From assembly GCA_026168455.1 (NCBI GenBank), contig CM047431.1:22199365-22263364 (forward strand): DNA of 64,000 nucleotides, given 5' to 3'. The DNA comes from Theocolax elegans (Eukaryota > Arthropoda > Insecta > Hymenoptera > Cerocephalidae). Made by a program: the position numbers and the translations under genes. The notes under the pieces are model-generated. The model was not told where the DNA came from. It searched no databases and saw nothing but the letters and a program-made list of their open reading frames with translations. Below, piece by piece: positions 17,536 to 38,089 of the stretch (positions within the stretch are counted from its first letter, which is position 1; each line of letters opens with the position of its first letter).

Positions 17536-17830
17536 TGTTACGTGGGGTTGGTCGCTCTTGACCTTCGGGATAGTATCACGGGTTAATAAGTGAGTACGAG
17601 AGTATAGGTATGAATCGTTTATTTGATCGTCCCGAGGGACACGTCTATTAACTACAAAAGGTGGAAAGCGAGTCTCTCGCTAGTCCGCGTGTCCATTGAG
17701 GATGGACCATCAAAATCCTTATCATTCGCACAGTGGGGGTAAATATGTTCCCAGGTGCTTGTCTTACATGCTGAGTGCCGACTCAGCATGTGAACACTAA
17801 GTTGCGCGAGTTCTCGGAACTCACGTGACA
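17536..17830 (-). repeat. giant element 3' LTR
   Basis: On the minus strand it begins TGTCACGTGA and ends CACGTAACA. It holds an 11-bp perfect hairpin with a GCCG loop at 17766-17791 and a CACGTG E-box at its edge. The minus-strand sequence just before it is not a clear polypurine tract, which is odd for so young a copy. Confidence 0.9.
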
Positions 17831-18874
17831 CGTCCTAGGCCGCGACCTTCATCGGCCTCGATGAAGTTACATTTAATGTTTGAATATAAGAGATTACAAT
17901 GGTGTTAGTATATTAAGGAAAAAAAACGAAATTGAGAGAAAAAAATCTGGTAATGTGTTATTGTATGATTACATACACATATGTGTTTTTGACGTTACAT
18001 GTTATTGGTATCGGTACATTAAGATAATTTGCTTAATAAACCATTCTTTCGATGCGCGTTTTTTTTTTTTTTTTATTTTAATCTTGGTACCTAAATATAT
18101 GACTACATTTCGTCTTTACGTTGAGTTCATATAAAGAAATATTCTTTGTTTTTTTTTTTGGTTTTTTTTTTTATTCGTCCATTCAATGTGTTTAGTTTAA
18201 GTGTATACAATTTTGTGTGCGTGTGTGTGCGTGTGTGCGTGTGTTGTTGTGTAAAACATTCATAACCCGTATCAACGTATTATTGGTATCATTGTTGTCT
18301 TTGCATTTTCATTCTTCTTATTGTGAGTGACTCCGAAACTTAACAACTTTGTAGCATTATTCGCCTGTTGACTGGTTGATGTAGGTAATTTGTTAGATTT
18401 TGGGTAAAATTGGGCCAATAAAGTAATCGTGTTTGTTGATTTTAAGTTACTATGTATGTTACAGGTTGTGGCTGAGTTAGTAAACCAGATTGGTGTTGAA
18501 CTAAGTCCATCTAAAATCACTTAAAATTGATTAGTAAAAAAGGGGGGGTGGTACCTGGAGAGAATAATTCTTAGTGAATGCGAGTATGTATTTCGATGGT
18601 TATTTTATTTGTGCGTGTGTTAAGGCACTGTACTTTTTTTTTTTTTTTTTTTATTATGCTTCTTATGAATATTGTCTTTTACATGAAAGAGAACGATTTG
18701 CATGTGAGTATATGAGTGTGAACATAATTTCGTGATTTGAGTGGTGTGGTTTGTGTGCTTAGTCTACTAAAATGTTAGTGATCTTATGCTAGTACCAAAT
18801 TAATTTACGGAGGATTCTATAAGTATGATGTAACATGAATTTTTGTTGTAATTTAAATTTGCGTAACTCATGAA
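17831..18874 (-). other. giant element 3' untranslated region
   Basis: About 1 kb between the envelope stop and the 3' LTR. It contains homopolymer A/T runs, a GT-rich microsatellite near 18213-18244 and an 8-bp hairpin (CTTCATCG and CGATGAAG) at 17849-17868. No gene was seen. Confidence 0.6.
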
Positions 18875-20905
18875 TTAAGGGATTGATTCTGTAGTTTTAA
18901 TAAAGCTTACTCTCTTTTCCGGGGATTTAGTGATTGTTTCTAATAGGATAGGTTCTTTGGGTTTATATGAGTGAAAGGCAATAGTTTTCCTGGTAGTGGA
19001 TTGTTTTACTGGATTTTCGCTGGATGGATCGTCGTTATCGTCTGAATCCTCTATTTCTTCTGCGTTGTGTGTGGCTGTTGGCGTTTGTGTATGTGTTGAC
19101 AAATGCATAAATAAATGTGTGAGTGAGCTGAAACAGGCGGCTAGAAGATGCCTACTGCAGCCGTAAGCCGTGTGAAGTGTGTAAGTACGAATTAAGACGT
19201 TAATTATAGCTTTGATGAATTGATAAGCTGAGATGAGGCCTATTATGGCTGCACAGTAAGTGCCGAACGTGATGAGTCCTGATGTCAACGATGTAAATAC
19301 TGATCTTGCTTTAATTTCTATGTATTCTTCATCTATGATATTGGAAAACTGGCTATGATATGATACGTCCGATTTATTGGCTAATTTACGTGTGATGTCG
19401 AACATAAAGGCTTGGTGTTCTATTGGAAAAAGTACATGGTTTTGTGCTCGTTCGATATCTGATTGTGAATAGATTCCACTGTTCATGATATTGGTTATTG
19501 ATTCATAATACCATGTTGGCGTGGTTTTTGGATTGATCGTCTGGGGAGTTCGGACTTCTATAGATGTGGCTGGGTTTCTGTGCCAGAATCCATCTAAAAG
19601 ATAATATGTTGGAAGTAATGGATTGCAGTCTCTTGTTATGCTGTTTTTAACTATGATTCTTGATCTTGGTTTCAGGAAGGTGGATGCATTGTTACACGAT
19701 ACTGGAAGATCTTCAAAGCATTCTTCGGTTTTCCGGAATGTACAAATTACTTGTTGGCATTCAAAGATGTACGCAGCTTCCCCTGCTGCATAAGCCATAT
19801 ATCCTTCTTTGCGCATAATCGCTAATGCGAATAGATCCGGGTGCTGATAAATAAGGGACATCGCTGTGGACATGATTTGCCTTTCTATTTGGCATCTATT
19901 ATGTAAAATGTCTTTGTATAGTGATGTAAATTGGGTTTTTACGTGTTTCGAGAAGTATGATATCTTGGCGTTGAAATAAGCATTGTTTAATATCTCGTGG
20001 ATATTTAATGTTTTTCTAGTTGCAAATGAGTCTTGAGTTTTTTCAAAGATGACTAATATAGGATGCTCGGTTTTTAAAATTGTGAAACCACAAACTGATA
20101 AATTACCGGTAATCTGGAGTCCGAATTGGATATTGTTGGATGAGTTAGCGAAATATATGGTTTGAAGTCCATCGGAAACTTTGGTTCCAATTCCCTCATA
20201 GAGGATTACGTATTCTTCGAACTTGCAAATCGATCTTGCGGCATAACTCCAGAAATAGTGTGTACCATCTGAGTTGGCACATTTTTCGTCTGAATAAGTG
20301 CATGATAGACCATTTTCCATTATTATTTTGTCTTGTAATTTTTTAGCTGTTGCTGAAATTTCTGAAAATGATATTTCTAGGTTATCGGTGACTACAACAT
20401 TTGTGTAATCATGGTTTCGGTGTCTAAAAATGGCTCCTTGACATTTGCCTTGATCGTCCAGGGAACCTGTGATAACTAAATTGACTCTGTTTATCTGTTT
20501 CTTGACCAAGTTGTCTACTATTTGGCCCATGTATTTGAATTGTTCGTATTTCACTAAATCGAAACACAATTCGCGAGATATTGATTTTTCGAAGGTTGAT
20601 TCTCCGTTGTTCACAATTGAACTATGCGAAAACATCCCACATGAGGTGATCTTTCTGTTCACTAATATTTTACATGACATGACTTTTGCCTCTTCTTGAT
20701 CTGTAGATTGCAATAATTGTATTGTGTTGTGGGAAACTAATGGCTCGTCTTCATTTGGTTGGCAACTGCCTACTTCTCTGATGGATATTAGCGTTGATTT
20801 TTCTTGATTATTTCCGCAGTCGTATCCTGATAGTGAAGTGTTGCAAATTGGTACTAAATGTGCTAGTGTTACAACCAGGATCAGATGAGTGACATGTGAC
20901 GACTT
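18875..20905 (-). CDS. env: envelope-like glycoprotein, probably from a spliced mRNA
   Basis: The open frame spans about 676 codons. It has no ATG near its start. It opens just after an in-frame TGA and a splice acceptor (CTGATTACAG, ending at 20906) and then reads through a hydrophobic signal-peptide-like stretch (LILVVTLAHLVPICN). The ectodomain is Cys-rich. A membrane segment lies about 110-140 residues from the end (GLITFGTYCAAIIGLISAYQ), followed by an acidic cytoplasmic tail. There is no furin site or fusion-peptide pattern of F-type errantivirus envelopes. The ECQQVICTFRKTEEC and LPVSCN spacing suggests a class III glycoprotein of jingchuvirus type, which arthropod LTR elements are known to have captured; that assignment is tentative. 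The role would be membrane fusion for cell-to-cell transfer. The frame looks intact. Confidence 0.7.
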   Translation of the reverse strand, partial: KSSHVTHLILVVTLAHLVPICNTSLSGYDCGNNQEKSTLISIREVGSCQPNEDEPLVSHNTIQLLQSTDQEEAKVMSCKILVNRKITSCGMFSHSSIVNNGESTFEKSISRELCFDLVKYEQFKYMGQIVDNLVKKQINRVNLVITGSLDDQGKCQGAIFRHRNHDYTNVVVTDNLEISFSEISATAKKLQDKIIMENGLSCTYSDEKCANSDGTHYFWSYAARSICKFEEYVILYEGIGTKVSDGLQTIYFANSSNNIQFGLQITGNLSVCGFTILKTEHPILVIFEKTQDSFATRKTLNIHEILNNAYFNAKISYFSKHVKTQFTSLYKDILHNRCQIERQIMSTAMSLIYQHPDLFALAIMRKEGYMAYAAGEAAYIFECQQVICTFRKTEECFEDLPVSCNNASTFLKPRSRIIVKNSITRDCNPLLPTYYLLDGFWHRNPATSIEVRTPQTINPKTTPTWYYESITNIMNSGIYSQSDIERAQNHVLFPIEHQAFMFDITRKLANKSDVSYHSQFSNIIDEEYIEIKARSVFTSLTSGLITFGTYCAAIIGLISAYQFIKAIINVLIRTYTLHTAYGCSRHLLAACFSSLTHLFMHLSTHTQTPTATHNAEEIEDSDDNDDPSSENPVKQSTTRKTIAFHSYKPKEPILLETITKSPEKRVSFIKTTESIP

Positions 20906-21883
20906 CTGTAATCAGAGTGTTAGGATGGGTGAGTGAAAGGTTAAGAGAGATGTTTGTTAAGTATAATAACTATGATTGACTGAATGTATATAAAAAGTGA
21001 TGAATCCGTCGAAAATTAATTTGTTTACATGAACTGAAAGGATAAGCATGTTTTAATTGCTATAAAAGGTTGTGGTGACGTGTTACTACTGAAATGGATT
21101 TTTATTCGTGAAGTAAAAAAAAACCTACTTGTAAGGTGACAAATATAACATTGTTGTTTCTGTGATGATTTGTATATTCTGATTGAAGTTAAAATACGCC
21201 AAAACGTTAGGCTGCTTGATTTGAATTCGTAGAACATGTGTGTTTCGCCGACAAACTTATAACTCAAGACAATTTTCATAGAATTTGAAGCTGTTTGATT
21301 GTGACTAACTTGTGATTAATGTGGACTCGCATTTACTTGTGATTTTTTTGTAATGATGTGGGTTTACTTGAGGGAATGAGGTGAATGTTGGTACCCTTTT
21401 TTTTTTGTATTCATATGAAGCTCAGCTATGAAAAAATTTGAAAAAAAGGTATAGCACGAGTTTCACGAATTTACCGGGATCGTGACTTATGATACTAAGG
21501 TAAACAGATTGGGATAGGTGTAAGCGGTGGGATGTGAGTGTGTATAGATTGCTCGTGACTTGAAAGGTAGAATTCGGACTCTGTTCTTAATCCGAACTAA
21601 ACCTTTCAAACCAGTTATGATTCTATTTGATGAGGGAGTTGTTCATGATTAGGATGCTGTTGCTGAATGTAGTGTTAGTATGTATTACAGGAGGTTATCT
21701 TGGGTGGTGGCGTCCGGGGACGCGAAAAATATAATTCGATTTATCGAATTGTATTTTTCGTTTTTTTTTTTTGTGTACTAATATACGAATGCGTGTCTGT
21801 GAGGGTTTTGTTATTTATAAAAGGGGAGGGGAAGAGGGTAGGGTTATGATTGCTTTAGTGTACGCACTTGATCTACATGTGTG
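20906..21883 (-). other. spacer between integrase and envelope
   Basis: About 980 bp without a gene. It ends at the envelope splice acceptor. A near-palindromic ATAATTCGATTTATCGAATT stretch lies at 21731-21750, and poly-T runs are scattered. Confidence 0.6.
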
Positions 21884-24379
21884 TTAAGATTTGGGTGGGG
21901 GTGCGCGGACGGATGAAACTCTTTTAATTTTGTCTATATGTGTTACTCTGATTTCTTTTCCGCGTTTAAGGGTTACGTTGTGAGAATTATAGTCTATGTT
22001 GATTATCTCATATTTGCCTTTGTATTGTCTGGGGAATTTTCCTATTTGGGGTTCTTTTAGTAAATATACTAATTCACCTTCTCGGAAATGTTTCAGATTG
22101 AGTTTTTTGTCATAATAGTATTTGGATCTATACTTGGCTTGAACTAAATTCATAGCTGCTAGAGTTTGGTTTTGTGATATAGTTGATGTTAGATCGGCTA
22201 AATAATCTCCGAAATTTTGTAATGTTTCTTTGGGAGGGAAGCTTGATGGAGTTCTAGCTTTCTCTCCGAATACAAGTTCGTGCGGGGTAAAGGACGTTGC
22301 CTCGTGTTGAGTGCAGTTGTAAGCATGCTGACATGTGGATGTCCATTGATCCCATTCGCACATATTGTTGACGTATTGTTTGAGATACTCTGTGATGGTA
22401 TGGTGCATGCGTTCGATTCCGCCCATAGATTGAGGGTGGTACGCGGAAGATGCGTATTTTTCTATTTTAAATATTTTTGCAAATTCTGATAAGAGTTTAT
22501 TTTGGAAGTGCGACCCTTGATCCGTTACGATGATTCGTGGGGGTCCAAAATATGCTATAACTTTATCCATAAGAGACTTGGCTACTTCGTTGGCATTTGC
22601 TAGTTTTACTGGTGAGAGAACTATGAATTTCGTTAACCAGCATTGGACCGTTAAAATGTACCTATTACCTTCATACGTAGGTTTCAGTGGTCCATAGAAA
22701 TCCAACGATATTTTATCAAAGGCTCTGCTTGGAGTGTCAGTTATTACTAACGGAAGTCTGGTTTTAACTCGTACTAGTTTCTGGACACGACAATCTTCGC
22801 ATCCCAAAACAAACTGGTGTATATCTGGTCTCATGTTTCTCCAATAAAATTCTCTGGATATCTTATTGTAGGTTTTGTTGATTCCTCTGTGACCTCCTAT
22901 CGATGCTACATGAAATTCTTTTATCAATTTATATCTGTCCTCTACTGGCGGGACAGGTAGGTTGTTTAAAAATAGTACAATTGTTACGTTCGTTTTTTGA
23001 AAGCATCTGTTGCAATAATCTATGAGGTAGTCCCATTCGTTTTGTGTCATTATTTGTAAATCTTGCACTAGTCCTAACGTGTTAATTTTATTAGTTAAAA
23101 TAACCTGTTTTAAACGGTTGATGGCTTTTTTCAAATCTAATTTGAGTGGTTTGTTATGCATGTGATGCTTGATAAAAATATACATAATTACTACATTTTG
23201 GATTTTGGTAATTTCTACTTGGCCTATAGAAGGTTGAGACAATGCTAATGCTTCTTGAATTATGAATTGTCGTTCAGTTAATGCATCAATTACTTCTGTG
23301 TTACAAATAAGGTCTGTCGTTAATAAACAAGCTAAGTTTTCTTGAAATGCGAACGGATGACATTTTAGTTTAAGTACGTGAGTGAATGGAGGGCTAATGG
23401 AGTTGTTTGGAACTGCCCATGGTGGTTTTTTTGGTGGTCGTGCATTCTGTACAAGATGCGGGACTAAGGTTTTACTTATGTTTCCTGCTATTTTTTGGGA
23501 ATTATGAATTTGTTCAGAATGATTTGAGTTGTTTTCTGACGGTGCTGTGTCCGATTGATTATGCAGGGGATCGGGTCCTTGAAGTGGTGGTGGAGAGGTG
23601 TTGTTATCATCCTTGTCTATGTCCTGGTTGATGAATGAGGTTTTACTTAAATTTACTTCATGTCGTTTAATATAAGGTGTGAAGTGATTACCGGTGAGGT
23701 GGAGGTGTATAAAACCTTCGTTTGAGTCTGCTAGATATAAATTGTATTGCATATTTCCGAAATCATTTACATAGTGTACGCAGATGTTTTGATTGTAGGT
23801 ATGTGTGAATATATATAAACAATCAGCATCGCCATAGGCTGTATTTGAGCTCAATATGGCTGCTACGTTTGAGGGATCTCCGCAGTTTCGCATTGCTGGG
23901 GAGTTTAACAACTTACGCCGTAATTCAGTTGCTGAGACTTTTAGCTCGCATAGTTTGATTAGGCAATAGAATAAGCAGTTGCCCGGTGGGTCTGCTGGTA
24001 TATCGTAGGATTCAATCAAATCTGCGTGTGGTTCACTACATGTTGGACTTGGTTCATATACTCTAAATCTGCCTCTGTAGGACTCTGTGGAAGGAGTTTT
24101 TCCTTGTGATTCTTCTTTTCGCGGGACATAGTCGAAGTTTTCTACATTGTCAATGTTTGAAGGACCTTGATCAAAAAATGGGTCATCCAATATTGGAGGA
24201 TCTATTGGATCTATTTCATAGCTATTTGGTAATATATGTTCGTCCGAGCAATTCGATTCTTTTGAACTTGATTTACTGGAACTCAAGTCAGAATTGTCTT
24301 CGTTTGGGACGACAGTTGGTTCATACGTCGGAGATCTATGTTTAGCGTGTTCTTCATGTTTACGATGTGTTTTTTCCAT
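21884..24379 (-). CDS. OTU-protease/integrase polyprotein
   Basis: The 831-residue ORF starts at its own ATG, 8 nt after the stop of the upstream pol ORF and in another frame. Residues 1-120 are acidic and Ser-rich. Residues 126-238 form an OTU-type cysteine-protease domain: PPGNCLFYC carries the presumed nucleophile C135 and GNHFTPYI the histidine H232. Integrase follows, with a zinc module (GGHRGINKTYNKI, CEDCRVQK) and a core with DFYGPL, VTDQGSHF and GGIERMHH, the three acidic residues all present. The C-terminus has a GELVYLL-type DNA-binding tail. OTU domains usually cut ubiquitin chains; here it could also process the polyprotein. Both activities are predictions. Confidence 0.85.
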   Translation of the reverse strand: MEKTHRKHEEHAKHRSPTYEPTVVPNEDNSDLSSSKSSSKESNCSDEHILPNSYEIDPIDPPILDDPFFDQGPSNIDNVENFDYVPRKEESQGKTPSTESYRGRFRVYEPSPTCSEPHADLIESYDIPADPPGNCLFYCLIKLCELKVSATELRRKLLNSPAMRNCGDPSNVAAILSSNTAYGDADCLYIFTHTYNQNICVHYVNDFGNMQYNLYLADSNEGFIHLHLTGNHFTPYIKRHEVNLSKTSFINQDIDKDDNNTSPPPLQGPDPLHNQSDTAPSENNSNHSEQIHNSQKIAGNISKTLVPHLVQNARPPKKPPWAVPNNSISPPFTHVLKLKCHPFAFQENLACLLTTDLICNTEVIDALTERQFIIQEALALSQPSIGQVEITKIQNVVIMYIFIKHHMHNKPLKLDLKKAINRLKQVILTNKINTLGLVQDLQIMTQNEWDYLIDYCNRCFQKTNVTIVLFLNNLPVPPVEDRYKLIKEFHVASIGGHRGINKTYNKISREFYWRNMRPDIHQFVLGCEDCRVQKLVRVKTRLPLVITDTPSRAFDKISLDFYGPLKPTYEGNRYILTVQCWLTKFIVLSPVKLANANEVAKSLMDKVIAYFGPPRIIVTDQGSHFQNKLLSEFAKIFKIEKYASSAYHPQSMGGIERMHHTITEYLKQYVNNMCEWDQWTSTCQHAYNCTQHEATSFTPHELVFGEKARTPSSFPPKETLQNFGDYLADLTSTISQNQTLAAMNLVQAKYRSKYYYDKKLNLKHFREGELVYLLKEPQIGKFPRQYKGKYEIINIDYNSHNVTLKRGKEIRVTHIDKIKRVSSVRAPPPKS

Positions 24380-24387
24380 ATGTTTGT

Positions 24388-27300
24388 TTACTGGAGTGAC
24401 GAAGGATACTCTGGTTTTGAGTGACTAACTCGATTTTCTGCGTTCGCTGCGATCTTTGGGACTGGTTTTTCTATTAATTCTGGGTGTTTTTCCCATATGT
24501 CGACTTCAATTCCTTTTCTGCTATCAGTTTCTTTTTTCTTAATGTTAACTAACAAATTTAAATTGTCTCTATCTAAAATTTCCTTTATTTGGGTTGAAAT
24601 GTCGGGTTCCTGAATTTTCCTATTGACTGAAAGAATTGAGGATGAATCTGAGTGTGTGTTAGGTACTGAGAAATAACTTGGTTCAGTTTGAGTGCCTCTA
24701 GTAGTATGATCGTAAATTATTTTTGGTTTTTGTGTGTTTGGTGCTGGGCGGTTGCTTTCTCCTTGTATGTTTAACGGAGTGCTCGTTGCTTTTACATTTT
24801 TTGTTAAATTTTTATCTTTGCAGATATATGCCATTTTTTGACCACTAATTGCTTGGCTGATTATTACATCTGTGGTTGACTTTTCGTTGGCTGTGCTGGA
24901 CGTGGTTGACTCGTGTTTGCTGGATATTTTTTCTTTTTCTAATGATAAGGCTAGAGTGTGTAAAATTCTTTGTTTTTCTTCTTCTGGGAGTACAAATGAC
25001 TGTTTAATAGGGACTAGACGTACGTTGCCAAGAATACAGCCGTATTCGATGGTGTCGCAATAGTCCGGTGAATATAGATTCGTTTCTTCATCGAGAGTTA
25101 GCCACTGGACGTCTATTTTCTTTTTATTCTCTACTATGTCGTTCCTTGTTTTGCATAGATAAAAGTTGTTATGTTCGTTTCGGATGGCTAAAAATTCGTT
25201 TTTATAATAAATGATATTTTTTGAATTTTGTTGAGCTTCCTGCGTGATGATTGGTTTAACTTCTTTTTTTGCGTATTTTGTTGGAACTTCAATTTGATTA
25301 TGTACATAGTTTGCTGTTGGATCTACTTCTTCCTGTAATTTACGTTTACTTGCTGTACGGGCCATTAGGATTCTGGCTGGTGGACTATTTTCTTCGCCGT
25401 ATAATTTGCTGGAGTTTGCTTGTTTTTCTGCTAGTGCATATAGTTCTACTCGGGGTTTCTCTGGATTTTCTTCATTTGCTTTGATGATTGGATTGCGCGA
25501 AAGTGCGTCCGCATGTGAATTCTTGTCTCCTGGGCGATAGATTACACTGAAATTATAACCTCTGAGAGCTGCTTTCAGTCTGTTGAACCTGAGGTCTGTT
25601 TTTTCGCTAGTAAGGAAGTGTTTGAGAGGTTCGTGATCTGTAACGACTGTAAAGTGTTTACCGTAAAGGTATGGTGAAAACTGTTCTTTAGCGAATACTA
25701 CTGCTAACAATTCTTTATCATAAGTTGGGTAGAGAAGTTCACTGCCTTTAAGACAACGTGATGCATAGGCGCAAGGTCTATCCTTCCCTAGTTGGCCTTG
25801 ACTAAGGATAGCGCCTATTGCAAAATCGGAAGCGTCAGTTGTGACTATAAATGGTTTTTCGAGATCTGGTGCTTGTAGTATTGGTTCTTTGCATAATTCG
25901 TCACGAAGTTTTTCAAATGCATCATTTTCTGTTTTAGTCCATGTAAACTTCTTAGTCTTCTTTAGTAATTTATTTAGTGGGTTTGCAATTTTAGCGAAAT
26001 TTTCAATGAATCTTCTGTAATAATTGACGAATCCTAAAAATTGTTTTACTTTTTTGGGATTTGTAGGTGTAGGGTAGTTCTTTACTGCACTAATTTTGTT
26101 TGGATCTGTTTTTATGACTCCGTTGCCTACAATGTGTCCTAATACATGTGCTTCTCTTTTCAAAAATTGACACTTTTTAGGTTCAATAGTTAAATTCGCT
26201 TCTCCTAATCTTTTCATTAGTCTTTTGAATCGAATGCCATGTTGTTCGAGGTCTTGTGCGAACACCATGACATCGTCTAAGTATATTTCTAATTCTTTTC
26301 CTTGCAGACCCGCAAGTGCTAATGCCATAGCTTTACTGAATGTTACGGTTGCGTCCTTTAACCCCATGGCCATCCTTTTATATTGATATGAGCCTGTTGG
26401 AGCAGAAAAGGCAGTTTTGGCTGCATCTTGTGCATCCATTGGGACCTGATAAAATCCTTGTTTGAGGTCAATGGCCGAGATGTAGCGGCTTGATGCTAAA
26501 TTATCTAAAATGTCTGCTGTGAAGGGGAGGGGATAAAAAGATCCTACTGTGATCTCATTTAGCTTACGAAAATCCGTCACCAGTCTCCATCTTTTATTAC
26601 CTTGTGCGTCCGGATGTTTTGGAATAATCCACATTGGGGAGCAGTATGGTGAATTTGATGGTTCTATGATGTCGCTCTCTAAAAGTTTATTTAGTTCTAT
26701 TTCTATTTGCTGCTTAAGAGCTAAAGGGTATCTGTACTGTTTAGTTCTTACTGGCTTATCTGTGGTTGTTTGAATTTTGTGCGTAATTAGGTGCGTAGCA
26801 GGCAATGGTTCGCCGTCTAAGCCAAAAATATACGGGTTCTCTTCAATGAGACTTCTAACATGATCAAGTTCTTCTTGATTACAACCTTTGGTGTCTACTA
26901 ATGAGAGAATCGTTTGTACTCTTTCTTGTTTTGATAAAGTATTTTTTATTTTATTGTCTCGGGTAAGTTTCAATATTTTTGCATGGTGTTTTTCGTCGTC
27001 CTCACCGACGTAAATGTCAGAATCTGGAATTGTGGTTTCACACTTTAATATTTTTACTTCTGGAACTTGGATCTCTACGTCTTTATATCCGGTGTTTATA
27101 CACATGGCGTAAGCCTTGTCGTTGTGGTTTGAAGCTAGAAAATTGCCAAATAAAATGTCTTTGTGAATTTGTTGAAGAGGAACCCAGCCTGATTTAGCTG
27201 AGTTTTTGGAGACATTAGCGTGAATAACACGTCTCATTCTTGCCGGTATAACGAATGACTCTTTTTTGATAAATGGGAATTCTTTGTCTTTTACTCTTAA

Positions 27301-27894
27301 ACAGTTGTTAGCTGCATCTATTTGACCATTATGGTCGTTTATGAAATCCCAACCAATCAAACCGTCTGTGTCTATTGGGAAATCAGAAGGAACAATATGC
27401 ACTTTGCATAAAAAATTATGTAAAAATATCGCAGCTTCTCCAAGAGTGTAGTTTACTCCTTGGGTGACTCCGCTAATTGCTAGCTTTTTCTCTTTGTTTA
27501 TAAAGGTGTCTTCTGAGAGTAATGGCTGTTTGATTATTGATATATCCGCTCCTGAGTCAACGTAAAATTTTGCTTTTCCTTGCTTTAAATGATTGCTTGT
27601 TATTTCTACCACTGGTGGTCTACGACCCGTAGATAGAAATCTTAATTTAATTACTTCATCTTCTTGGCTTCTTGGTTGATCTTTTGTGTTTTCGCTTGCC
27701 TGTGTATCAAAGTGTGACCCCTTGGTTAATTTTGAGTTCTTTGTGTCCGAGAGTGTGTGAGAAGTGAGTTGGTTTTGTTTTTCCGAAAATAATACTTCTA
27801 GACTGCTGGATCTGCTTAGATGAGATTGGTACTTTGAAACTTCCGCCTGCTCGGCATCTGAGGACAGTGGCGAGCAGTCTACTAGTTTAAATTG
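24388..27894 (-). CDS. pol: Pol: protease, reverse transcriptase, RNase H
   Basis: The frame opens 3 nt before the slippery heptamer at 27885-27891 and runs about 1168 codons. It has no ATG at its start, so it must be reached by -1 frameshifting from gag. Order: a Ser/Gln-rich linker; aspartic protease (YVDSGADISII); gypsy RT (DLKQGFYQVPM, catalytic YLDDVMVF); RNase H (TTDASDFAIGAIL, TDHEPL, DALSRNP). A long tail of about 330 residues follows. Its middle (FLAIRNEHNNFYLCKT to IEYGCILGNVRLV) looks like a small beta-barrel, perhaps SH3- or BAH-like, and I cannot name it. The ORF ends at TAA 24388-24390, directly before the integrase ORF. Confidence 0.9.
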   Translation of the reverse strand, partial: QFKLVDCSPLSSDAEQAEVSKYQSHLSRSSSLEVLFSEKQNQLTSHTLSDTKNSKLTKGSHFDTQASENTKDQPRSQEDEVIKLRFLSTGRRPPVVEITSNHLKQGKAKFYVDSGADISIIKQPLLSEDTFINKEKKLAISGVTQGVNYTLGEAAIFLHNFLCKVHIVPSDFPIDTDGLIGWDFINDHNGQIDAANNCLRVKDKEFPFIKKESFVIPARMRRVIHANVSKNSAKSGWVPLQQIHKDILFGNFLASNHNDKAYAMCINTGYKDVEIQVPEVKILKCETTIPDSDIYVGEDDEKHHAKILKLTRDNKIKNTLSKQERVQTILSLVDTKGCNQEELDHVRSLIEENPYIFGLDGEPLPATHLITHKIQTTTDKPVRTKQYRYPLALKQQIEIELNKLLESDIIEPSNSPYCSPMWIIPKHPDAQGNKRWRLVTDFRKLNEITVGSFYPLPFTADILDNLASSRYISAIDLKQGFYQVPMDAQDAAKTAFSAPTGSYQYKRMAMGLKDATVTFSKAMALALAGLQGKELEIYLDDVMVFAQDLEQHGIRFKRLMKRLGEANLTIEPKKCQFLKREAHVLGHIVGNGVIKTDPNKISAVKNYPTPTNPKKVKQFLGFVNYYRRFIENFAKIANPLNKLLKKTKKFTWTKTENDAFEKLRDELCKEPILQAPDLEKPFIVTTDASDFAIGAILSQGQLGKDRPCAYASRCLKGSELLYPTYDKELLAVVFAKEQFSPYLYGKHFTVVTDHEPLKHFLTSEKTDLRFNRLKAALRGYNFSVIYRPGDKNSHADALSRNPIIKANEENPEKPRVELYALAEKQANSSKLYGEENSPPARILMARTASKRKLQEEVDPTANYVHNQIEVPTKYAKKEVKPIITQEAQQNSKNIIYYKNEFLAIRNEHNNFYLCKTRNDIVENKKKIDVQWLTLDEETNLYSPDYCDTIEYGCILGNVRLVPIKQSFVLPEEEKQRILHTLALSLEKEKISSKHESTTSSTANEKSTTDVIISQAISGQKMAYICKDKNLTKNVKATSTPLNIQGESNRPAPNTQKPKIIYDHTTRGTQTEPSYFSVPNTHSDSSSILSVNRKIQEPDISTQIKEILDRDNLNLLVNIKKKETDSRKGIEVDIWEKHPELIEKPVPKIAANAENRVSHSKPEYPSSLQ
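27847..27891 (-). promoter_or_regulatory. -1 ribosomal frameshift signal, giant element
   Basis: Minus-strand TTTAAAC (27891-27885) ends gag as codons TTA AAC, directly before the TAG stop. After a 7-nt spacer, CTGCTCG pairs perfectly with CGAGCAG (27871-27877 with 27847-27853) around a 17-nt loop. The -1 frame has a TAG at 27897-27895, so the two frames overlap only in this short window. This fits the classical X XXY YYZ signal. Confidence 0.85.
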
Positions 27895-29855
27895 CTACTG
27901 CTGACATTTGGCTTATTTTGAGATTTGTCTGAGTTATCATTATTAGTGGTGGCGTTTGATTGCCTGTTGTATGAACTATGCTCCGATTGATGATTGGGGC
28001 GGCTGCTTTGCTCGTTTCTTTGTTGGGAATTACTGGTGTGATTCGATTTGGTACCGCTGGCATTGCTATCGGGCCTTTCCGCGCTGTAATTTCTATTGTA
28101 GTAGTTCCATCGACGATCGTTGTTGTAGTAATTGGGTCTGTGGCTGTAATTATTATTATTTACTCGCGGATTACTATTGTTATTGTAGTATCTATCGTTG
28201 TATCGAGTACGAGGGTTCCCGTAGTCGTGCTGCTGGTTATAATTGCTCTTCTCTCGGCGAAGCCTTTCATTGACTCGACGGTCAATACAGTTGCTAATTG
28301 AATGACCTTTTCTGTTACAATAGTTGCACGTTAGTTGTGGGATGTCATTATTTCGGGTGATATGCGGTTTTGATTGATCTACATTGGTTATCCTTAAGAG
28401 CTGCGTGGTAATACCATCAGCATCTTTTGATTCTTTGTTGGAATTTGCATTTTTGTTTTGGAGTCTGCACGCTTGTTGGCATTCGAACTGAGTAGCCCAT
28501 TTCATGGCTTCTCTTAGATTCGCCGGATGTTCGCTTCTTACTTGATTGTCGAATGGTTGTTTGAGACCATACATGAATTGCTGTAGTGTTTCTCGTTCTA
28601 TGGATAGTGTTTGCGATGTCTTCTCCGCTTCTGTGAGTGTCGTGTCAGCTTTGATTGAACTTAAAATTTTTCCTTTTAATGCTTGTATTCTAGAGCAGAA
28701 ATCGCTGACTGATTCAATGTCTTCTTGAGATATCACTCTGAGTTTACCGATAATGTCAAGAGTGCAGCCAAAGTTGCTATAGTGCGAGTATAAATCCTCT
28801 AGTAGACTTTCTACTCTGTCGTACGTAGTCAATCTATGAGCGTACGCTTCTAATGCTTTCCCAGTTAATTTGTTGGCCAATGATAGTAAAATTTTTCTTT
28901 CACTTGCCCGACCAAATGTTTCTGCCGTGTCTCTTATTGCTGCTGCAAATGTTGGAAGTGCGCCTTCTGAACCATTGAATGTTGGGATTAATTGGATAGA
29001 TTGGTATAGGGACATGTTGGCTGACGGGTCGTGCCGATTTTGCTGTATTTGAACTTGCGTGTTATCAGCTGTAGGAAGAACGTCACGTTCTCTAAGATTT
29101 GGGTTTTGTTGCACATTAAACATCCAATTTTGGGCGCGAGGGCTAAAGATATCTCTTGGGACTAAAATGCAGTTTTGTGCATTTGCAGCTGCCCATGCGT
29201 CTGTAAACTCAGTAGAACTGGGATGCTTTGTGTTGGACTGATTTTGTCGATGAATATCTTTTAGTGTTTCTGATCTTTTCATGGATCCATTGGGATTGTT
29301 TCTGGCCGAATACTGCGCTCCTAGCGTTGTGACTTCTTCGATAGGTGATGCGTTTCGTTTAGCTGATTCGTTGTTGGTATGCGTTTGCTGTCTTTCCTTT
29401 GGGCTGTTGACTCGATAGTTATTTTCACTTCCGAGATCTGTGGAAATCTGTGATCTGATTGACACTCGAGAACGAGGACGTGGTGATTCTAAACGGAACT
29501 TTTGCTCTCTGGCTCGCCTGTATTTTGTAAGTTCTGCATCTGAGCTTTCCGACTCTGAATCCGCATTCGCCATTTTGTCGTGGCAAAAAACGATCTCTTC
29601 GAGAGTTGCGATAGTTGCGGCTACCGATTTCTTATCGCCTTTCTTTTGAGTGAAAATTCTTTTGAAAATTTTTTCTAGTCGTTTATATTGATCGGGATCG
29701 CCGTACATCTCTTGGTGTATAATAGGATATGATGTTTCGTTTTCTATAATTTTCCGATTGCGCGGTATTGCTCCGCTGTTTGTCTGTAGTATCGTCTCAA
29801 TGTTGTCATCTTGGTCAAATAGCCTTGGAAGAGCTGAGTCAGAATTTGATGCCAT
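27882..29855 (-). CDS. gag: Gag of the giant element
   Basis: 657 residues from an ATG in a strong context (ACCATGG). The N-terminal 270 residues are charged and low in complexity. The centre (about 280-470) is a capsid-like region (LIPTFNGSEGALPTFAAAI, FMYGLKQPF). A CCHC knuckle, CNYCNRKGHSISNC, lies near residue 510. The last 130 residues are rich in Asn, Tyr, Arg and Ser and should bind RNA. Gag would build the virus-like particle. The stop directly follows the frameshift heptamer, so most ribosomes should stop here. Open frames on the opposite strand are shadows of its repetitive tail. Confidence 0.9.
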   Translation of the reverse strand: MASNSDSALPRLFDQDDNIETILQTNSGAIPRNRKIIENETSYPIIHQEMYGDPDQYKRLEKIFKRIFTQKKGDKKSVAATIATLEEIVFCHDKMANADSESESSDAELTKYRRAREQKFRLESPRPRSRVSIRSQISTDLGSENNYRVNSPKERQQTHTNNESAKRNASPIEEVTTLGAQYSARNNPNGSMKRSETLKDIHRQNQSNTKHPSSTEFTDAWAAANAQNCILVPRDIFSPRAQNWMFNVQQNPNLRERDVLPTADNTQVQIQQNRHDPSANMSLYQSIQLIPTFNGSEGALPTFAAAIRDTAETFGRASERKILLSLANKLTGKALEAYAHRLTTYDRVESLLEDLYSHYSNFGCTLDIIGKLRVISQEDIESVSDFCSRIQALKGKILSSIKADTTLTEAEKTSQTLSIERETLQQFMYGLKQPFDNQVRSEHPANLREAMKWATQFECQQACRLQNKNANSNKESKDADGITTQLLRITNVDQSKPHITRNNDIPQLTCNYCNRKGHSISNCIDRRVNERLRREKSNYNQQHDYGNPRTRYNDRYYNNNSNPRVNNNNYSHRPNYYNNDRRWNYYNRNYSAERPDSNASGTKSNHTSNSQQRNEQSSRPNHQSEHSSYNRQSNATTNNDNSDKSQNKPNVSSSNLN

Positions 29856-30998: not shown

Positions 30999-32759
30999 TT
31001 AGGTAGAATTGGTGAATACTTTTAAATAGTCTTGTTCGAAAACCACGCAGATTCCACGTTGTTTACATTTGTGTATGAAATTATTAACAGCACAAAATTT
31101 GCATTTAATGAAGGTGAAGCAAAAACTTATGTGTGGATCGAATTGATCTATAATGAAATCTGTGTTAATTGACGAGGTTTTCTTCCTGCCTAGGGTGTTT
31201 AAGACATATAGTTTCTCTAATTTGAGATTGGTAAAGTTCTTAAATAATGTATTAATTTTTGGAAAATAATTCAGCTGAAGATCTTTTAATGAGTCGGGAA
31301 ATACTGTGTTTTCAGAGATTTGTAGGCCTAAAATGTTTAATTTATTGATGTTTGGCATGTTTCCTACCAATTGATGGAATATGGGGTTTGCATGGGTGTG
31401 GTGACTGATGTCTAATTCTAAGAGTTCCCGATTTTTGTTTATTGAGTAGTTTTCTATAAAAAGGCCATTTGGAAGACAATCTTGTTTAAACGAGAATTCA
31501 AAGATTTTTATTTTACTACTTGGCGAAAAAATGATGTTAAATAACTTTAAGGAGTGGTGGTCACGCGCGTTACTGTTAATAAATCTAAATTCAGTTAACT
31601 TGGTTGAGTTTTTTAAGGTTTCCAATATGGTCGCGATTTTCAAGTGTCTACAATTGTTTATAGTTAGTGCTTTTAAGTTTTTCAAGTTACATACCGTTAA
31701 CTGGTCAAATCTAAAGACGTCATTATCAATTACGCATAGATGATCAATTCGTTTTAAATCTAAATTCATTTCTGCTTCCTTGACTGTGTGAGATAAAACT
31801 AACTTATTTGCTTTAAAATTTTCTGAAATTAATTTAATGATGTACGCTGAGACACGAATTCCTGATAAATCTATGAAATTTACAATGACTCTGCTGGTGA
31901 TTCTATTTTTTAGTACTTGATCAAAAAATTTGCCTACTGTTTCTGCTGAAATGAGGTATTTGTGACCTTTAAATTCGAAGGATTTAAACTTAAAAATTTT
32001 TGCATCTGCTATCATATTTGCAAGACCTTGTTTACAATTATATCTATCTGTACATGATTGAAAATTAAGTTTGGCGTATTTAGCTGTGGGTGGGCAATGG
32101 CAAGCTTGGTAAAAATTCCCAAAATCTTTAGCCGAAAGCATTTGGGAAAAAAACATGAGGATTTCGGTGCAAGACATTACGCGACGTAGCTCTTCGGGTA
32201 ATAGATCTGGATTGTACTCTATAGCGTTACATACTTCGTCAAAAATAAGGTATTGGTGTGGCTCTACGCTTATTGCCGACTGCAGACCTACTCTGTGTGT
32301 ATATATTAAATTACGTGTACATGCTAAGCATTGAATTTGTGCGGATGCGCTGATGTCTTGGCAGGACACCAACGCGTATGTAGCATTTAATCGTTTAATC
32401 ACTTTGTCCACGTTAAACTTCCTTATTTCTTTACTTTCTAGAAAATGAGTCAACTCTGTTTTTGAAATGTTGTGCCTAAAGTTGTACAATTTCAGCTTGA
32501 GTACTGGGGTATTTTCGATGAATAATATTGGTATTAAGCGCTCGTGTAGGATGGTCTCACCTGGTATGCCGTCTTTATCCATTCGCATCCTTTTTTTGAT
32601 GGCTTGTCGATTGTACGAATTCGTAAATTGTAAATAATATTCATCGAAATAAATTTGTGCTAATCTCAAAGCATGGATTTCTTCATAGTCCGTCGATGCT
32701 TCGATCCGCGTTTGAATATCGGCTCTGATCGATTGGACTTTCTCTAAAGCGGTAGTCAT
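30999..32759 (-). CDS. accessory ORF upstream of gag, RRM-like and leucine-rich repeats
   Basis: 586 residues from a true ATG with G at -3. I do not recognise the protein. Residues 85-135 (LKLKLYNFRHNISKTELTHF, then YALVSC) have the strand-helix-strand look of an RNA-recognition motif. Residues 140-245 are Cys-rich (CLACTRN, CHCPP, CTDRYNC). A stretch at 183-220 (LLPEELRRVMSCTEILMFF) vaguely resembles an F-box. From about 290 to 525 irregular leucine-rich repeats occur (LKNLKALTINNCRHL, NRELLELDISHH, MPNINKLNILGLQ). A Cys cluster lies near 547-571. RRM plus LRR recalls the mRNA export factor NXF1; an F-box/LRR adaptor is the alternative. Both are inferences. There is no signal peptide and the frame is intact. 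Confidence 0.75.
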   Translation of the reverse strand: MTTALEKVQSIRADIQTRIEASTDYEEIHALRLAQIYFDEYYLQFTNSYNRQAIKKRMRMDKDGIPGETILHERLIPILFIENTPVLKLKLYNFRHNISKTELTHFLESKEIRKFNVDKVIKRLNATYALVSCQDISASAQIQCLACTRNLIYTHRVGLQSAISVEPHQYLIFDEVCNAIEYNPDLLPEELRRVMSCTEILMFFSQMLSAKDFGNFYQACHCPPTAKYAKLNFQSCTDRYNCKQGLANMIADAKIFKFKSFEFKGHKYLISAETVGKFFDQVLKNRITSRVIVNFIDLSGIRVSAYIIKLISENFKANKLVLSHTVKEAEMNLDLKRIDHLCVIDNDVFRFDQLTVCNLKNLKALTINNCRHLKIATILETLKNSTKLTEFRFINSNARDHHSLKLFNIIFSPSSKIKIFEFSFKQDCLPNGLFIENYSINKNRELLELDISHHTHANPIFHQLVGNMPNINKLNILGLQISENTVFPDSLKDLQLNYFPKINTLFKNFTNLKLEKLYVLNTLGRKKTSSINTDFIIDQFDPHISFCFTFIKCKFCAVNNFIHKCKQRGICVVFEQDYLKVFTNST

Positions 32760-35700
32760 TGCAGTTATTGACTTTTTTTTTTTTATTTTTTTTTTTATTT
32801 GGCCGATGTTACCCCTAAATAACCAAAATGAAGTTTTGCTTAAAATTTACTACAAGTGTTCTCTTAATAAGGCTGTACTAAATTGAAGGAATTGTAAAAT
32901 AAGTGAAAAATATTTGGTTATTAATATTCTTTGACATGTGTATAATAAAACTTTAGCAATTATTGCGTAGAATGTTAACAATAATTTATATTCACATCTG
33001 TATAAGTTTGATAAGTATGTTCTTACTTGTACGTTTGAGGATATTATTTTTCGCTGAACGCGATTATTATATTATTTTACGTTTCAAGTGTCGTTCAGAA
33101 AGGGATCGGGTGTAATAAGTATAACTTAATCAAGATTGAATTTCAAGATTTTATTGTAACGTAGTACTGATAGTGCGAGATAAATGTTACTACTAAGAAT
33201 TATTTTTCTGTTTAATTTGCTACGTGTGCTTTTTTTGCTTGGTGAGTCGTGAGAACGGTAAAACTAAGTTTAAAGTTAAAAATTGTTACTTGAGACGAGT
33301 GTAGATAAAAGCATTTTATTTTTTGACGGTTGGTTAAATTTACTTTAATATATGTTAAAACAATAATGTTAAATTGATGTATTTCGTGTGTGATTTACAT
33401 TTCCATTTGGAAGGGAAGAAAAAAAAAAATGAAGGCCAGTTGAAATTTTTCGTTAAAACGAATAGGATAATTATTAGATGTTTCAGAGAAAAATTAAATT
33501 AAAGCTTAGTCGACAAAAAAAAATTTGAAGAGGAATACATGAAATAAGTCGTTATTTTGAATTTTTTGGTTAAATTATTTTTGTTGGTTTTCTGTTGAAA
33601 TTTGTTAATTTTCCTAATGAAAAATTTTTTTTTTTTTAATTAGATATTGAGCTATTATTGAGAAAAAAAAAATTTCTTAGATTTGCGAAATAAATTTTGT
33701 ATGGTTTATTGTAATTCTTGAGAATTGTAATTTCACAGTAAATTTTGGTACACCTAGTTTGGTTTCAAAATTATATGGTCTTATTTTTTTTTTAATTGGG
33801 AACGTGCCTTGTTTTTCTGTTTTAATATTTCTATTTAATTTAAATTAATTGATTGCTGTAAGGCTATTATTATGTGTTTATTTTTGTGTGTAAAATGCAT
33901 ATATTTAAGTATACGCGTTCCTAAAAATGTATGCACCAAGGTGCAATTTTTGATATTGCCATGGTTGGCTCTGCTCACGTCGCTATTTGTTTTTTTTTTG
34001 TTACTTCCGTTTAATCGCAAATTAAGTTTATTTGCTAAAACATGCAATAATTTGTTTGAATATTTGGGAGAAAATATTAATGTTAAGAAAAATCTTAACG
34101 ATGAAAACGAGGGGGTTAATAAAATAACTTTTTGTCTAAGTTCGATAGAAAAAAAGGAAAGAGATAAATACTTATTTGCCTTTTGCGCATGAATCTGTAG
34201 CCTGTTTCGTGAGTTACTTATAAAAAAAGCTGAATGTGGATTTTGTTACAATAAAAAAAAAGGGTGAGTTGATGAGTAGGAAAAATGTTTAATTGTTACT
34301 TGATTTGATTCTTTTTGAAAAGAAAATAAAATATTTAAACTCCTGTGCTTTGTTAAAAAAAAGGAACGAGAAAAGAATTTAAGTATGATTTATAAAAATT
34401 ATTTAAACTTATAAAACTTGATATTTACATATCCAAGAAACAAGACTAAAATTGTATGTAATTTCTTTGCTAACATAAAAAAATGCGAATATTATATAAA
34501 AAAAGGCGAATAATATAAAAAATGTGAAACTTTACGGAGTTTGGTTTGATGTTTAATTTTACAACGTTGTTGACTATAAGAAAAGAAATTATATCTCGAA
34601 TTAACGAAGACTATTGTTAATATGTAGGAAAAAATTACAAAATTGTGTTTAATGCATAACTTCCGAGAGAATTTGTTTAGCTATGTGGAAAACTGAAAAA
34701 TCAGTTGTACATGGCTTCGCAAGATTTCCCGACGGAAGCACATAACGCGCTGGTTTATATAAAAAAAGACTTTATTGTTAAAAAAAAAGGTTTTACTTTT
34801 CGTTATATGGAACGATGCAGTCCGCCGAAAACCCTTGCTTATCTCTGTGGAAAAAGGAAAATTCCATAGTACATCGACTCGCAAGATGTCGTCGGAAGAG
34901 CAGATCTTTTTTTTTGTGAAATACTGGTAAAATATTTATAACTCCAAGTTTCATCAAAATTTATTAAAAACTGCTACAAATTAAATAATATTTGAACTGA
35001 ACATTAATAATTATTTATCATTAATTTTAAAACGTTAAATATTTATAAAAGGTTTTATTGTTTTGCACGCGATTTTTATTTGCTAATATACAGTATAAAT
35101 GGTTTTAAGGAGTTTTATTATAAAAACTTTCAATTGCGCGAGAAATTACTAATGACATTTGTTAAATGGGCAAAAAAAGGAGAATTTTATGCTTTTTCAA
35201 CGATGATCGACTATGATTCACTACTACATGTACCTTATTTTAGTAAAAGAATTAATTATTCAGATGTGTAATTTCACTTTTAATATTAATATTTTTTGAT
35301 GAGGATAAATTTACCTATGTTATATATCTGATTTCTGTAATTTTTATGTTTTAAATTATTAACAGTGAAATAATATAAAAAATTTTGACGTGAATAATGT
35401 GCAATGAGCGATATGTAACAGATAAATGTACAGGGAAAAGCAAAAAATTCTAACAGTAGTGATCCTATAATAATAATTAACTTTATCAATGAGAAGAGAA
35501 GAAAATATAAATGACTCTTACCTTCTTAGTTGTTGCAGGAATTGTAATATATATATATATCTATATATATATTTATATATATGTATAATCTGTTAATATT
35601 GTTTTTTTTTTTTTTATTACCCGTAATAACACTTGGACTGAATTAATTAAATTATTGCAACTGACCTATTTTCGTGTGATTTACACATAGTGTTTGAATA

Positions 35701-37623
35701 CTGTTATATGAAAAACTTGCACGATAGACGTATGTTTGAAATTAAATATAAGCTGCTTACACGAATCACTATTTATTATTGTTGTTAACAATCATAATTT
35801 GTCACTGTTATATATATATTTGTTATATTATTATTATTTTGTATTGTTTTATATTACAATTATTGTTAATTTTAACTTGAATTTCTATTGTAACTGTTTC
35901 CGCGAGTCGCGATGCACGTAAAAATGCTTAATTTTTGCCAATAAGAAATTCACTACTATTTTCCTAATTTTTGTGAGCTATATGTTTTGTAACCAGTGAA
36001 TTCCATTTTATTACTTTAACCTGTCAATCCAGGTGAATGGAAATGGGGAAAACCGCGGTAAACTCCGTTCATGAAGGATAAAGTATCAATGAAATTTCTG
36101 GTTTCTGTTTATTTAATAAAAGGAAATATAAAAAATGGATTTTAGCTGGTTAACTTGGGAAAATGGGATAGGTTTAGGATTTCTCCAAAAGGTTAATTTT
36201 TATGCTGCACCCGCGTTTATCCGTCGAAAATTTTCGCGCGTATCAGGTCGATAGAAGAAAAAAGAATTTTTGGCAAGTTTCCCCGTTACCGAACAAACTG
36301 ATTGCGATGACGACTCTCGCCTAACTGACTAATATGCGACACTCGGATGCACGGTGATGCACTTTTTCTTCTCGGCGTTTGAGATAAGGGAGCGTAGAGG
36401 GTCAACTTACGGATGAGGTGATAAAATAATAACGTATTATAAGTATACGTGCGAGAGAGACACGAGTTTGGAGAAGAGATATTTTCTTGGTACAATGTAT
36501 ATTGTTAAAGACTTCTATGCGTATATAGTAATGGTTGAGAGACAACGAGAGGAGAGGAGAGTAGTGCATCGGTTTGCATTTTCTTGATGACGTACTTATT
36601 ACTCGGACTTGAAACTATATTAATTTTCTAATCTGAAATTTATTTTGTTAATGCAATTGCGCGTACTTTCCGTTTATTATTGCTTTTTGATTAATTTTAA
36701 TGATGTATTTTGGTAATAATTGTAAATTGTTCATAATCTCAAAAGTTTATCTAAATTATTAAAGTAATGTTTGAAATTCAAATCTTGTCTAAAATTTTAT
36801 AAAAAAATTTTGGTTAATCTATTTTTCTTGTAGCTTTTGTTACGGTTGCAATAATAGAATAATAAAAAAAAAGGGGAATTGAAGTTAGTAATTGTCAACT
36901 GTACCTAGAATGTCTATTAAGACTTATAATTTGCAATATTATATGGATGATATAAGTACTAAATTATTGAGAAAAAAAAGGATAATAGTGATTTGTTATT
37001 AATCTGTGAGTATAGCAACTCGGTTACTTATTTCTTATTAAAAAAGTAGAAAAGATAAATTGACGAAGAGAAATCACGTAAAGGTATCAAATTTTATACT
37101 TTGTTATCATTCTTTTTTTTTTTGTGAGTTTTCCGCGTTTTTATAATTTCTATAAGGATAGTAAAATTATTAGTTTTTCGTAGTGGCATATTATGCATGC
37201 TTCTGTGTAAAAATAAAATGATTTTAATTAATAACGACAAGCAAACCGAGAAAAAAAACACGCTAAATTAAAATTTACATAATAATGTTAATTATATTGC
37301 TTACCTGAATGCTGGTGGTGAGGTTGTTGCGCCAAAAAGCCATGTTCGAAAAGGAAAAAAAAAACAGAAAAAAAACTTGCTTTGTTTTGTCAAACAAGGG
37401 TATTTCTTATACAAAAACGCGCACTGAATTTACTTGATTAAATTGTACCGATATTGAAGATAAAACTCTGGGACTCGCGATTGAAAGTACAAGGAAAATT
37501 TCTAATTTTTGATGAAATTTTGAAAAATGAGTAAAATGAATTTATTAAAAAATTAACCCAGATGTGACACTGGCCGTACTAGGATCAAGAGTACCGCTGT
37601 CACCAATTTAAAGAGTCTTTATC
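32760..37623 (-). other. giant element 5' leader, 4.9 kb
   Basis: From the 5' LTR to the LRR ORF I see no gene, only AT-rich sequence with many A and T runs and short unsupported frames. Just inside the LTR the minus strand reads GATAAAGACTCTTTAAAT and then TTGGTGACAGCGG. The second part resembles a Leu-tRNA primer site but lies 17 nt from the LTR, not adjacent to it. A splice donor for the envelope mRNA should lie here or in early gag. Confidence 0.5.
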
Positions 37624-37918
37624 TGTTACGTGGGGTTGGTCGCTCTTGACCTTCGGGATAGTATCACGGGTTAATAAGTGAGTACGAGAGTATAGGTATG
37701 AATCGTTTATTTGATCGTCCCGAGGAACACGTCTATTAACTACAAAAGGTGGAAAGCGAGTCTCTCGCTAGTCCGCGTGTCCATTGAGGATGGACCATCA
37801 AAATCCTTATCATTCGCACAGTGGGGGTAAATATGTTCCCAGGTGCTTGTCTTACATGCTGAGTGCCGACTCAGCATGTGAACACTAAGTTGCGCGAGTT
37901 CTCGGAACTCACGTGACA
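37624..37918 (-). repeat. giant element 5' LTR
   Basis: 295 bp, one visible difference from the 3' LTR (GAGGAAC against GAGGGAC). It ends next to ATAT at 37919-37922, the copy of the target site also seen before 17536. Confidence 0.92.
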
Positions 37919-38089
37919 ATATATTCGCACATCGCATCGGTACAATTGTATACGCACATACTCTGCAAGTTGTTAAATTTTCTTATATACTAATCACGAG
38001 AAAAGTTAGTCGTTTGCGTGTAACCTGGATCCACCTAGTGGACGCTATCTGAAACTACTATTTTTAACAAACGATTTATTTAATTTATA

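What the first reader, a model, noticed from the sequence alone, without database searches (positions are those of the whole stretch)
17536..37918. A 20.4-kb gypsy-type element with five open genes and near-identical LTRs
The LTRs differ at one visible position in 295, the ATAT duplication is intact and all five ORFs are open. The size is two to three times that of normal gypsy elements because of an accessory gene, long spacers and a 4.9-kb leader. It appears young and perhaps still mobile.
Basis: partly seen in the sequence, partly recalled or inferred. Interest (0 to 1): 0.85.

Follow-up and report, generated by a model that had tools for sequence, protein, structure and literature searches.

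The report
Giant gypsy element with chuvirus-type envelope
This is a young, 20-kilobase retrovirus-like mobile element with a Ty3/gypsy engine, an envelope gene of the kind known from unrelated RNA viruses (chuviruses), an extra leucine-rich-repeat gene and a possible ubiquitin-cutting domain, and it is one of a whole group of such elements in its genome.

Summary
The 20.4-kb element is real: 295-nt LTRs differing at one site, ATAT duplication, minus strand. It is no one-off: 41 LTR matches, four more LTR pairs with matching 4-bp duplications, and siblings with the same leader start, leucine-rich-repeat (LRR) gene and envelope.

'Five open genes' needs correction. The two pol frames are one gene: 3 of 9 close copies read it as one 2003-codon frame, so pol is broken here. 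The envelope frame has no ATG.

Gene order: LRR accessory, gag, pol with about 870 extra codons before integrase that hold an OTU-like region (tentative), envelope. RT/RNase H is closest to Ty3. The envelope matches Pfam Monjiviricetes_fusion, the chuvirus type, E=2e-152. Gag-Pol probably uses a -1 shift at UUUAAAC; envelope probably starts on a spliced 13-codon leader exon (inferred).

Accessory, OTU-like region and envelope lie together at 16 loci, 7 of them with only 61-66% identical envelopes. The accessory shows purifying selection.

A 2023 survey saw no clear Gypsy capture of this glycoprotein (PMC10084718); a relevant 2025 paper was not held. Host not identified.

The parts
37624..37918 (-). 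5' LTR, 295 nt
37595..37606 (-). possible primer-binding site TGGTGACAGCGG, 18 nt inside the 5' LTR; primer tRNA not determined
   Evidence: read; present in 10 of 102 loci held, all of them 5'-LTR loci
37305..37343 (-). predicted start exon: ATG and 13 codons up to a splice donor CAG|GTAAGC
   Evidence: inferred from sequence only
32760..37623 (-). 4.9-kb leader
   Evidence: first 1.5 kb compared with siblings only near the donor
30999..32759 (-). accessory gene, 586 aa, LRR protein
27882..29855 (-). gag, 657 aa; weak Ty3_capsid match (E=6.5e-5, 22.9 bits, cut-off 29.1)
27885..27891 (-). UUUAAAC directly before the gag stop, candidate -1 slippery site
   Evidence: same letters in relative L067
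24388..27612 (-). pol, first frame: protease, RT, RNase H (frame open from 27894)
21884..24379 (-). pol, second frame: OTU-like region and integrase (frame open from 24424)
23660..24070 (-). OTU-like region with invariant G-N-C and H..P
   Evidence: against:
18875..20905 (-). envelope, Monjiviricetes-type fusion glycoprotein; acceptor-like TTACAG ends just before 20905
17536..17830 (-). 3' LTR, 295 nt
17532..17535 (.). target-site duplication ATAT
37919..37922 (.). target-site duplication ATAT

Best explanation
An endogenous, retrovirus-like Ty3/gypsy (Metaviridae) element of a lineage that carries a jingchuvirus-type fusion glycoprotein as envelope, an LRR accessory gene before gag and an OTU-like region inside Pol. 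Shown: LTR boundaries, 4-bp duplications, gene order, recent insertion, recurrence in siblings and divergent relatives, selection on the accessory. Inferred: Gag-Pol by a -1 shift at UUUAAAC; envelope from an mRNA spliced from the donor at 37305 to the acceptor before 20905, so that the leader ATG opens the signal peptide; passage between cells by the envelope. Tentative: the OTU-like region removes ubiquitin or a ubiquitin-like protein from Pol or from host factors (about 0.6 that it is an OTU fold). Weakest: the LRR protein is an adapter to a host ubiquitin or antiviral pathway (about 0.4) or exports unspliced RNA (about 0.3). This copy is a recent insertion with a broken pol.
For: LTRs and duplications; siblings; protease, RT, RNase H and integrase, Ty3 Gag-Pol chain 7q5b at E=6.6e-76; envelope E=2.1e-152 over profile 62-643 of 653; donor with in-phase ATG in 0.7% of simulated leaders, donor kept in 12 of 12 and ATG with phase in 10 of 12 5'-LTR loci, window and one local duplicate included; UUUAAAC also in L067; accessory dN/dS 0.12-0.27 in the seven comparisons that were not saturated; 16 loci with all three modules; accessory profile hits ribonuclease inhibitor at E=9.1e-9.
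Against: No RNA or protein data. Pol is broken in this copy. The curated OTU model finds none of the 128 OTU-like places (69 places found, 0 shared), only 1 of 14 members reaches even E=0.053, the Asp before the Cys is not conserved, and two odorant-binding proteins score nearly as well in the PDB search. The relative L061 has a stop just before the mature envelope start. One sibling envelope comparison gives dN/dS 1.23 on very few changes. No RT or envelope tree was made.
Confidence: 0.8

Rival explanations
1. An ordinary envelope-carrying gypsy element that has gathered passenger DNA: accessory, leader and pol insert have no function in its cycle.
For: The accessory has no relative in the protein database and no Pfam domain above cut-off; four related pol frames of 1940 codons have an envelope close by but no accessory match (only 75 of 228 accessory candidates were scored).
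Against: dN/dS of 0.12-0.27 for the accessory, co-occurrence with envelope and OTU-like region at 16 loci, long open frames with the OTU-like region down to 32% identity.
Confidence: 0.1
2. The two pol frames are a regular programmed frame change, not damage.
For: Two copies have similar second-frame lengths, 842 and 846 codons.
Against: 3 of 9 close copies read through in one 2003-codon frame.
Confidence: 0.07
3. The pol split is a sequencing or assembly error and the copy is whole.
For: Single-copy frame changes are a common assembly error (general knowledge).
Against: A second copy has a frame of similar length. No reads could be checked.
Confidence: 0.2
4. The region before integrase is not an OTU protease but another cysteine-rich domain.
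For: Curated OTU model does not find it; odorant-binding proteins score close.
Against: Invariant G-N-C and H..P in 14 members; 5 of 8 PDB hits of the core profile are OTU or viral L-protein pieces that I recall as OTU domains; hhalign 84%, E=7.5e-6 against OTU sequences of this genome, control 0.1%. The hhalign match ends before the histidine.
Confidence: 0.4

Closest known systems
Anakin, BEL/Pao elements of mosquitoes with a chuvirus glycoprotein (PMC7642597, passages seen)
   Same: LTR retroelement with a chuvirus-type glycoprotein behind pol
   Different: Engine is BEL/Pao there and Ty3/gypsy here; no LRR gene or OTU-like region is mentioned in the passages seen
Errantiviruses and other envelope-carrying gypsy elements (PMC12440569 part 1 of 5, PMC13172572 passages seen)
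   Same: Ty3/gypsy engine with an envelope gene, 4-bp duplications
   Different: Errantivirus envelope is described as baculovirus-derived (PMC12440569); here it is the Monjiviricetes type
Burro, giant gypsy elements of planarians (PMC6431247, passages seen)
   Same: Giant gypsy element with accessory, ubiquitin-related domains and an envelope-like region
   Different: Over 30 kb, one huge polyprotein with MATH/TRAF, BIR and other domains and an in-frame env; here separate frames, LRR and OTU-like
Cer1 with CERV, C. elegans (PMC10309623, passages seen)
   Same: Gypsy-type element with an extra protein besides Gag and Pol
   Different: CERV comes from a spliced mRNA and exports unspliced RNA; no such function tested here, no sequence comparison made
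Ginger1 DNA transposons (PMC2836005, passages seen)
   Same: OTU domain in one protein with a gypsy-type integrase
   Different: OTU lies C-terminal of the transposase there; here the OTU-like region precedes integrase in a retroelement Pol

Membership tests
Ty3/gypsy (Metaviridae) | order protease, RT, RNase H, integrase | tested here: met
Ty3/gypsy (Metaviridae) | RT closest to Ty3 | tested here: met
   among solved structures only; 7q5b is named Ty3-G, 4ol8 recalled as Ty3; no tree
Ty3/gypsy (Metaviridae) | TG...CA LTRs and 4-6 bp duplications | tested here: met
   definition from PMC12440569
Errantivirus | baculovirus-type envelope | tested here: not met
   only Monjiviricetes_fusion is called
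Errantivirus | place in the RT tree | not tested
   no reference sequences were at hand
Anakin (BEL/Pao with chuvirus glycoprotein) | chuvirus-type glycoprotein inside LTR boundaries | tested here: met
Anakin (BEL/Pao with chuvirus glycoprotein) | BEL/Pao pol | tested here: not met
   Ty3-type RT and RNase H
Troyka | CG...CG termini and 3-bp duplications | tested here: not met
   definition from PMC12440569
Burro | giant Gag-to-Pol polyprotein with MATH/TRAF and BIR domains | tested here: not met
   separate frames, no such Pfam domain
OTU cysteine protease | Pfam OTU above cut-off | tested here: not met
OTU cysteine protease | catalytic Cys in G-N-C and a C-terminal His | tested here: met
   invariant in 14 members
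OTU cysteine protease | catalytic Asp near the Cys | tested here: inconclusive
   D in many but not all members, with a two-residue insertion in most
OTU cysteine protease | OTU fold | tested here: inconclusive
   single-sequence model pLDDT 45, not usable
LRR protein | leucine-rich repeats | tested here: met
   profile of 11 members against PDB, ribonuclease inhibitor E=9.1e-9; no Pfam LRR above cut-off

The most novel reading that the evidence does not exclude
A distinct, recently mobile lineage of complex animal retroviruses: a Ty3/gypsy engine that took its envelope from a jingchuvirus and carries a deubiquitinase inside Pol plus an LRR host-interaction gene, with a spliced envelope mRNA; the accessory gene may have moved between retroelement lineages (before gag here, behind a pol-like piece in L072, seen by eye).
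Probability: 0.33. Interest if true: 0.85.

Novelty: new variant of a known kind. Interest (0 to 1): 0.66.

Why it matters
A 2023 survey of jingchuvirus glycoproteins in arthropod genomes found them flanked by Gypsy fragments but reported no clear evidence of capture by Gypsy, only by Pao (PMC10084718, Results section and passages seen). Here such a glycoprotein sits inside bounded Ty3/gypsy elements and recurs with the same partner genes in divergent loci. That makes capture of one type of viral envelope by two retroelement superfamilies directly testable. The selected LRR gene and the OTU-like region suggest retroelements that act on host pathways, and the predicted splice junction and slippery site are simple RNA predictions.

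Tried and rejected
Secondary insertion or assembly join: rejected, siblings share the parts. Five separate genes: rejected for pol. C7:40129058 and C7:40151062 looked like a 22-kb pair but have the same flanks, so they are one solo LTR duplicated, and are not counted as a pair; the LTRs C1:16164688 and C1:78600021 share flanks with neighbours and are not counted as further copies. The possible pair C5:19101504/19121450 was not checked for its duplication (no locus for the second LTR). Structure models: both single-sequence jobs were poor (pLDDT 45 and 40); the Foldseek list for the accessory, with NLRP proteins on top, is not used. Host: four ends of three long sequences showed no telomere array for the motifs counted, and the insect marker search PF01395 did not complete, so no taxon is claimed. 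Database relatives of the accessory (7996 candidates scored) and of the pol insert: none. Envelope in IMG/VR: 29 stretches matched a pattern, none confirmed. PHROGs: only weak matches of unknown function for the accessory. One search read the minus-strand loci (L051, L052, L054, L059) on the wrong strand; those lines are not used. Accessory behind pol in L072: by eye only, Pfam did not call its pol part. RRM-like and F-box-like parts of the accessory: by eye only. Primer tRNA: not tested.

Full report
Place and host. The window is G000:C7:22199365-22263364 of an unnamed assembly of 658 Mb in 1277 contigs; seven of its sequences are 66-111 Mb long. The host was not identified. That it is an animal is inferred from the kinds of elements.

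Observation. The 295-nt LTRs differ at one position and the element is flanked by ATAT. The LTR search gave 41 matches (40 of 52 candidates scored). Five LTR pairs have matching 4-bp duplications: ATAT (window), ACAT, ATAT, CAGT and CGAG. Their start-to-start distances are 20,088, 20,137, 20,083, 23,004 and 22,175, and their LTRs differ by 1, 0, 0, 2 and 3 substitutions, the last also by 2 gaps. Solo LTRs with matching flanks exist too. One change in 295 at 3e-9 to 1e-8 per site and year (recalled rates) means about 0.2-0.6 million years, with a wide error.

Genes. Order: accessory, gag, pol, envelope. Protease, RT, RNase H and integrase are called by Pfam; gag has only a Ty3_capsid match below its cut-off. 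The best solved relatives of protease-RT-RNase H are 4ol8 (E=2.1e-76) and 7q5b, Ty3-G Gag-Pol (E=6.6e-76). Between the RNase H match (ends near 25555) and the integrase zinc domain (begins near 22948) lie about 870 codons. The search with the region before integrase gave 128 matches (128 of 253 candidates scored). Nine copies match at 93% or more: 3 have the region in one 2003-codon frame; the other six, the window included, in frames of 430-1271 codons. So the window's pol is broken and 'five genes' is four.

Envelope. PF24664 Monjiviricetes_fusion, E=2.1e-152, profile 62-643 of 653. Three database proteins match at 35-46% identity and begin, by eye, with a signal peptide. The window's matching N-terminus is open to 20911 without an ATG. 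Just before 20905 stands an acceptor-like TTACAG. The leader's only donor of 7.8 bits or more, CAG|GTAAGC at 37305, has an ATG 13 codons upstream in the right phase. In 1000 simulated leaders 5% held such a donor and 0.7% one with an in-phase ATG within 150 nt (threshold set after seeing the site). Among 12 5'-LTR loci (one is the window, one a local duplicate), 12 keep the donor and 10 keep ATG and phase. Of 16 loci probed for the acceptor, the 6 of this family that align there keep it, the window included; 7 LTR loci do not reach it and 3 relatives are too diverged. In relative L058 (66% identical envelope) an ATG follows an acceptor-like TTCACAG; in relative L061 a stop stands just before the mature start, which does not fit simply. 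Splicing is inferred.

Gag-Pol. Pol lies in the -1 frame of gag. Gag ends AAT TTA AAC TAG, with the heptamer UUUAAAC; L067 has the same letters there. An in-frame UUUAAAC in the last 12 nt has a chance of about 0.0007 by base composition.

Accessory. 84 matches at 22-100% identity in the own genome (75 of 228 candidates scored), many open at about 590 codons. The profile of 11 members hits ribonuclease inhibitor (E=9.1e-9) and, weakly, SKP2 (0.016) and ANP32 (0.022). dN/dS: 0.15, 0.19 and 0.27 against three siblings, and 0.12, 0.19, 0.21 and 0.24 for four other pairs (dS about 2 in the first); 8 further comparisons were saturated and give no value. Envelope: 0.09, 0.25 and 1.23 against three siblings, the last on very few changes; 2 saturated. 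Comparisons between copies also include changes after insertion.

OTU-like region. 14 members were aligned: window, L067 and 12 pieces fetched of the 128 matches. G-N-C and H..P are invariant. The core profile has 8 PDB hits at E up to 1: four pieces of viral L proteins (0.035, 0.039, 0.3, 0.93), which I recall as OTU domains; EschOTU (0.23); two odorant-binding proteins (0.3, 0.32); an initiation factor (0.56). The longer profile gave three L-protein pieces and one odorant-binding protein, 0.3-0.44. Against six OTU sequences of this genome (chosen from the 69 matches to PF02338; several look like Helitron proteins, recalled) hhalign gives 84%, E=7.5e-6, but the aligned part ends before the histidine; the accessory profile as control gives 0.1%. 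Against: of 14 members one reaches PF02338 at E=0.053 and none the cut-off, and none of the 69 PF02338 places is among the 128.

A lineage. Of 84 accessory matches, 29, at 16 distinct loci, have an envelope and an OTU-like match within 35 kb; about 0.65 accessory-envelope pairs are expected under even placement. Seven of the 16 have envelopes of only 61-66% identity. In six of these seven the order and strand agree with the window; at C3:8.17M the order differs, so neighbouring elements are possible. 26 of 73 envelope matches have an OTU-like match within 8 kb, among them four with 1940-codon frames and no accessory match nearby. A further 35 envelope matches at 38% identity have no stop inside (72 of 1403 candidates scored); their engine was not determined.

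Mechanism. Shown: a bounded LTR element, recent insertion, gene order, selection on the accessory, recurrence. Inferred: -1 shift, spliced envelope, cell-to-cell passage. Tentative: ubiquitin cleavage, accessory as host adapter or RNA exporter.

Literature. PMC10084718: Results section and passages. PMC7642597, PMC6431247, PMC13172572, PMC10309623, PMC2836005: passages. PMC12440569: part 1 of 5. Chary and Hayashi 2025, cited in PMC13172572 for envelope-carrying gypsy elements across metazoans, is not held and was not seen; it may describe related elements. Searches listed no paper that, by title and start of abstract, describes a gypsy element with chuvirus-type envelope, OTU-like region and LRR gene; the library holds open-licence papers only.

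Noticed in passing
16777-17312 and 38112-40279: The element sits between a 42-bp and a roughly 112-bp tandem array.
   Followed up: no
7000-11000: An island of about 53% G+C in a window of otherwise mostly 18-42%; it holds a Pao-type peptidase ORF.
   Followed up: no
1466-3091, 52023-54173, 54942-59649, 61090-63078: Pieces of copia-type and further gypsy-type elements.
   Followed up: no
17831-17880: No clear purine tract beside the 3' LTR, but a short inverted repeat; the plus-strand primer is unclear.
   Followed up: no
G000, e.g. C433:16524-18197: 35 envelope matches at 38% identity without stops, with nearly equal scores: another, possibly young, envelope-bearing group of unknown engine.
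   Followed up: no
L072:934-4299: Accessory fused in frame behind a piece that looks by eye like protease and RT of another element; Pfam does not call that piece.
   Followed up: partly
G000:C5:34413117 and 34415501: Two accessory matches side by side in one locus; similar neighbours at C2:46836825/46839705 and C7:23747174/23748837.
   Followed up: no
G000:C2:38951402 and similar: Clear OTU domains in repeated frames up to 1846 codons, probably Helitrons (recalled).
   Followed up: partly
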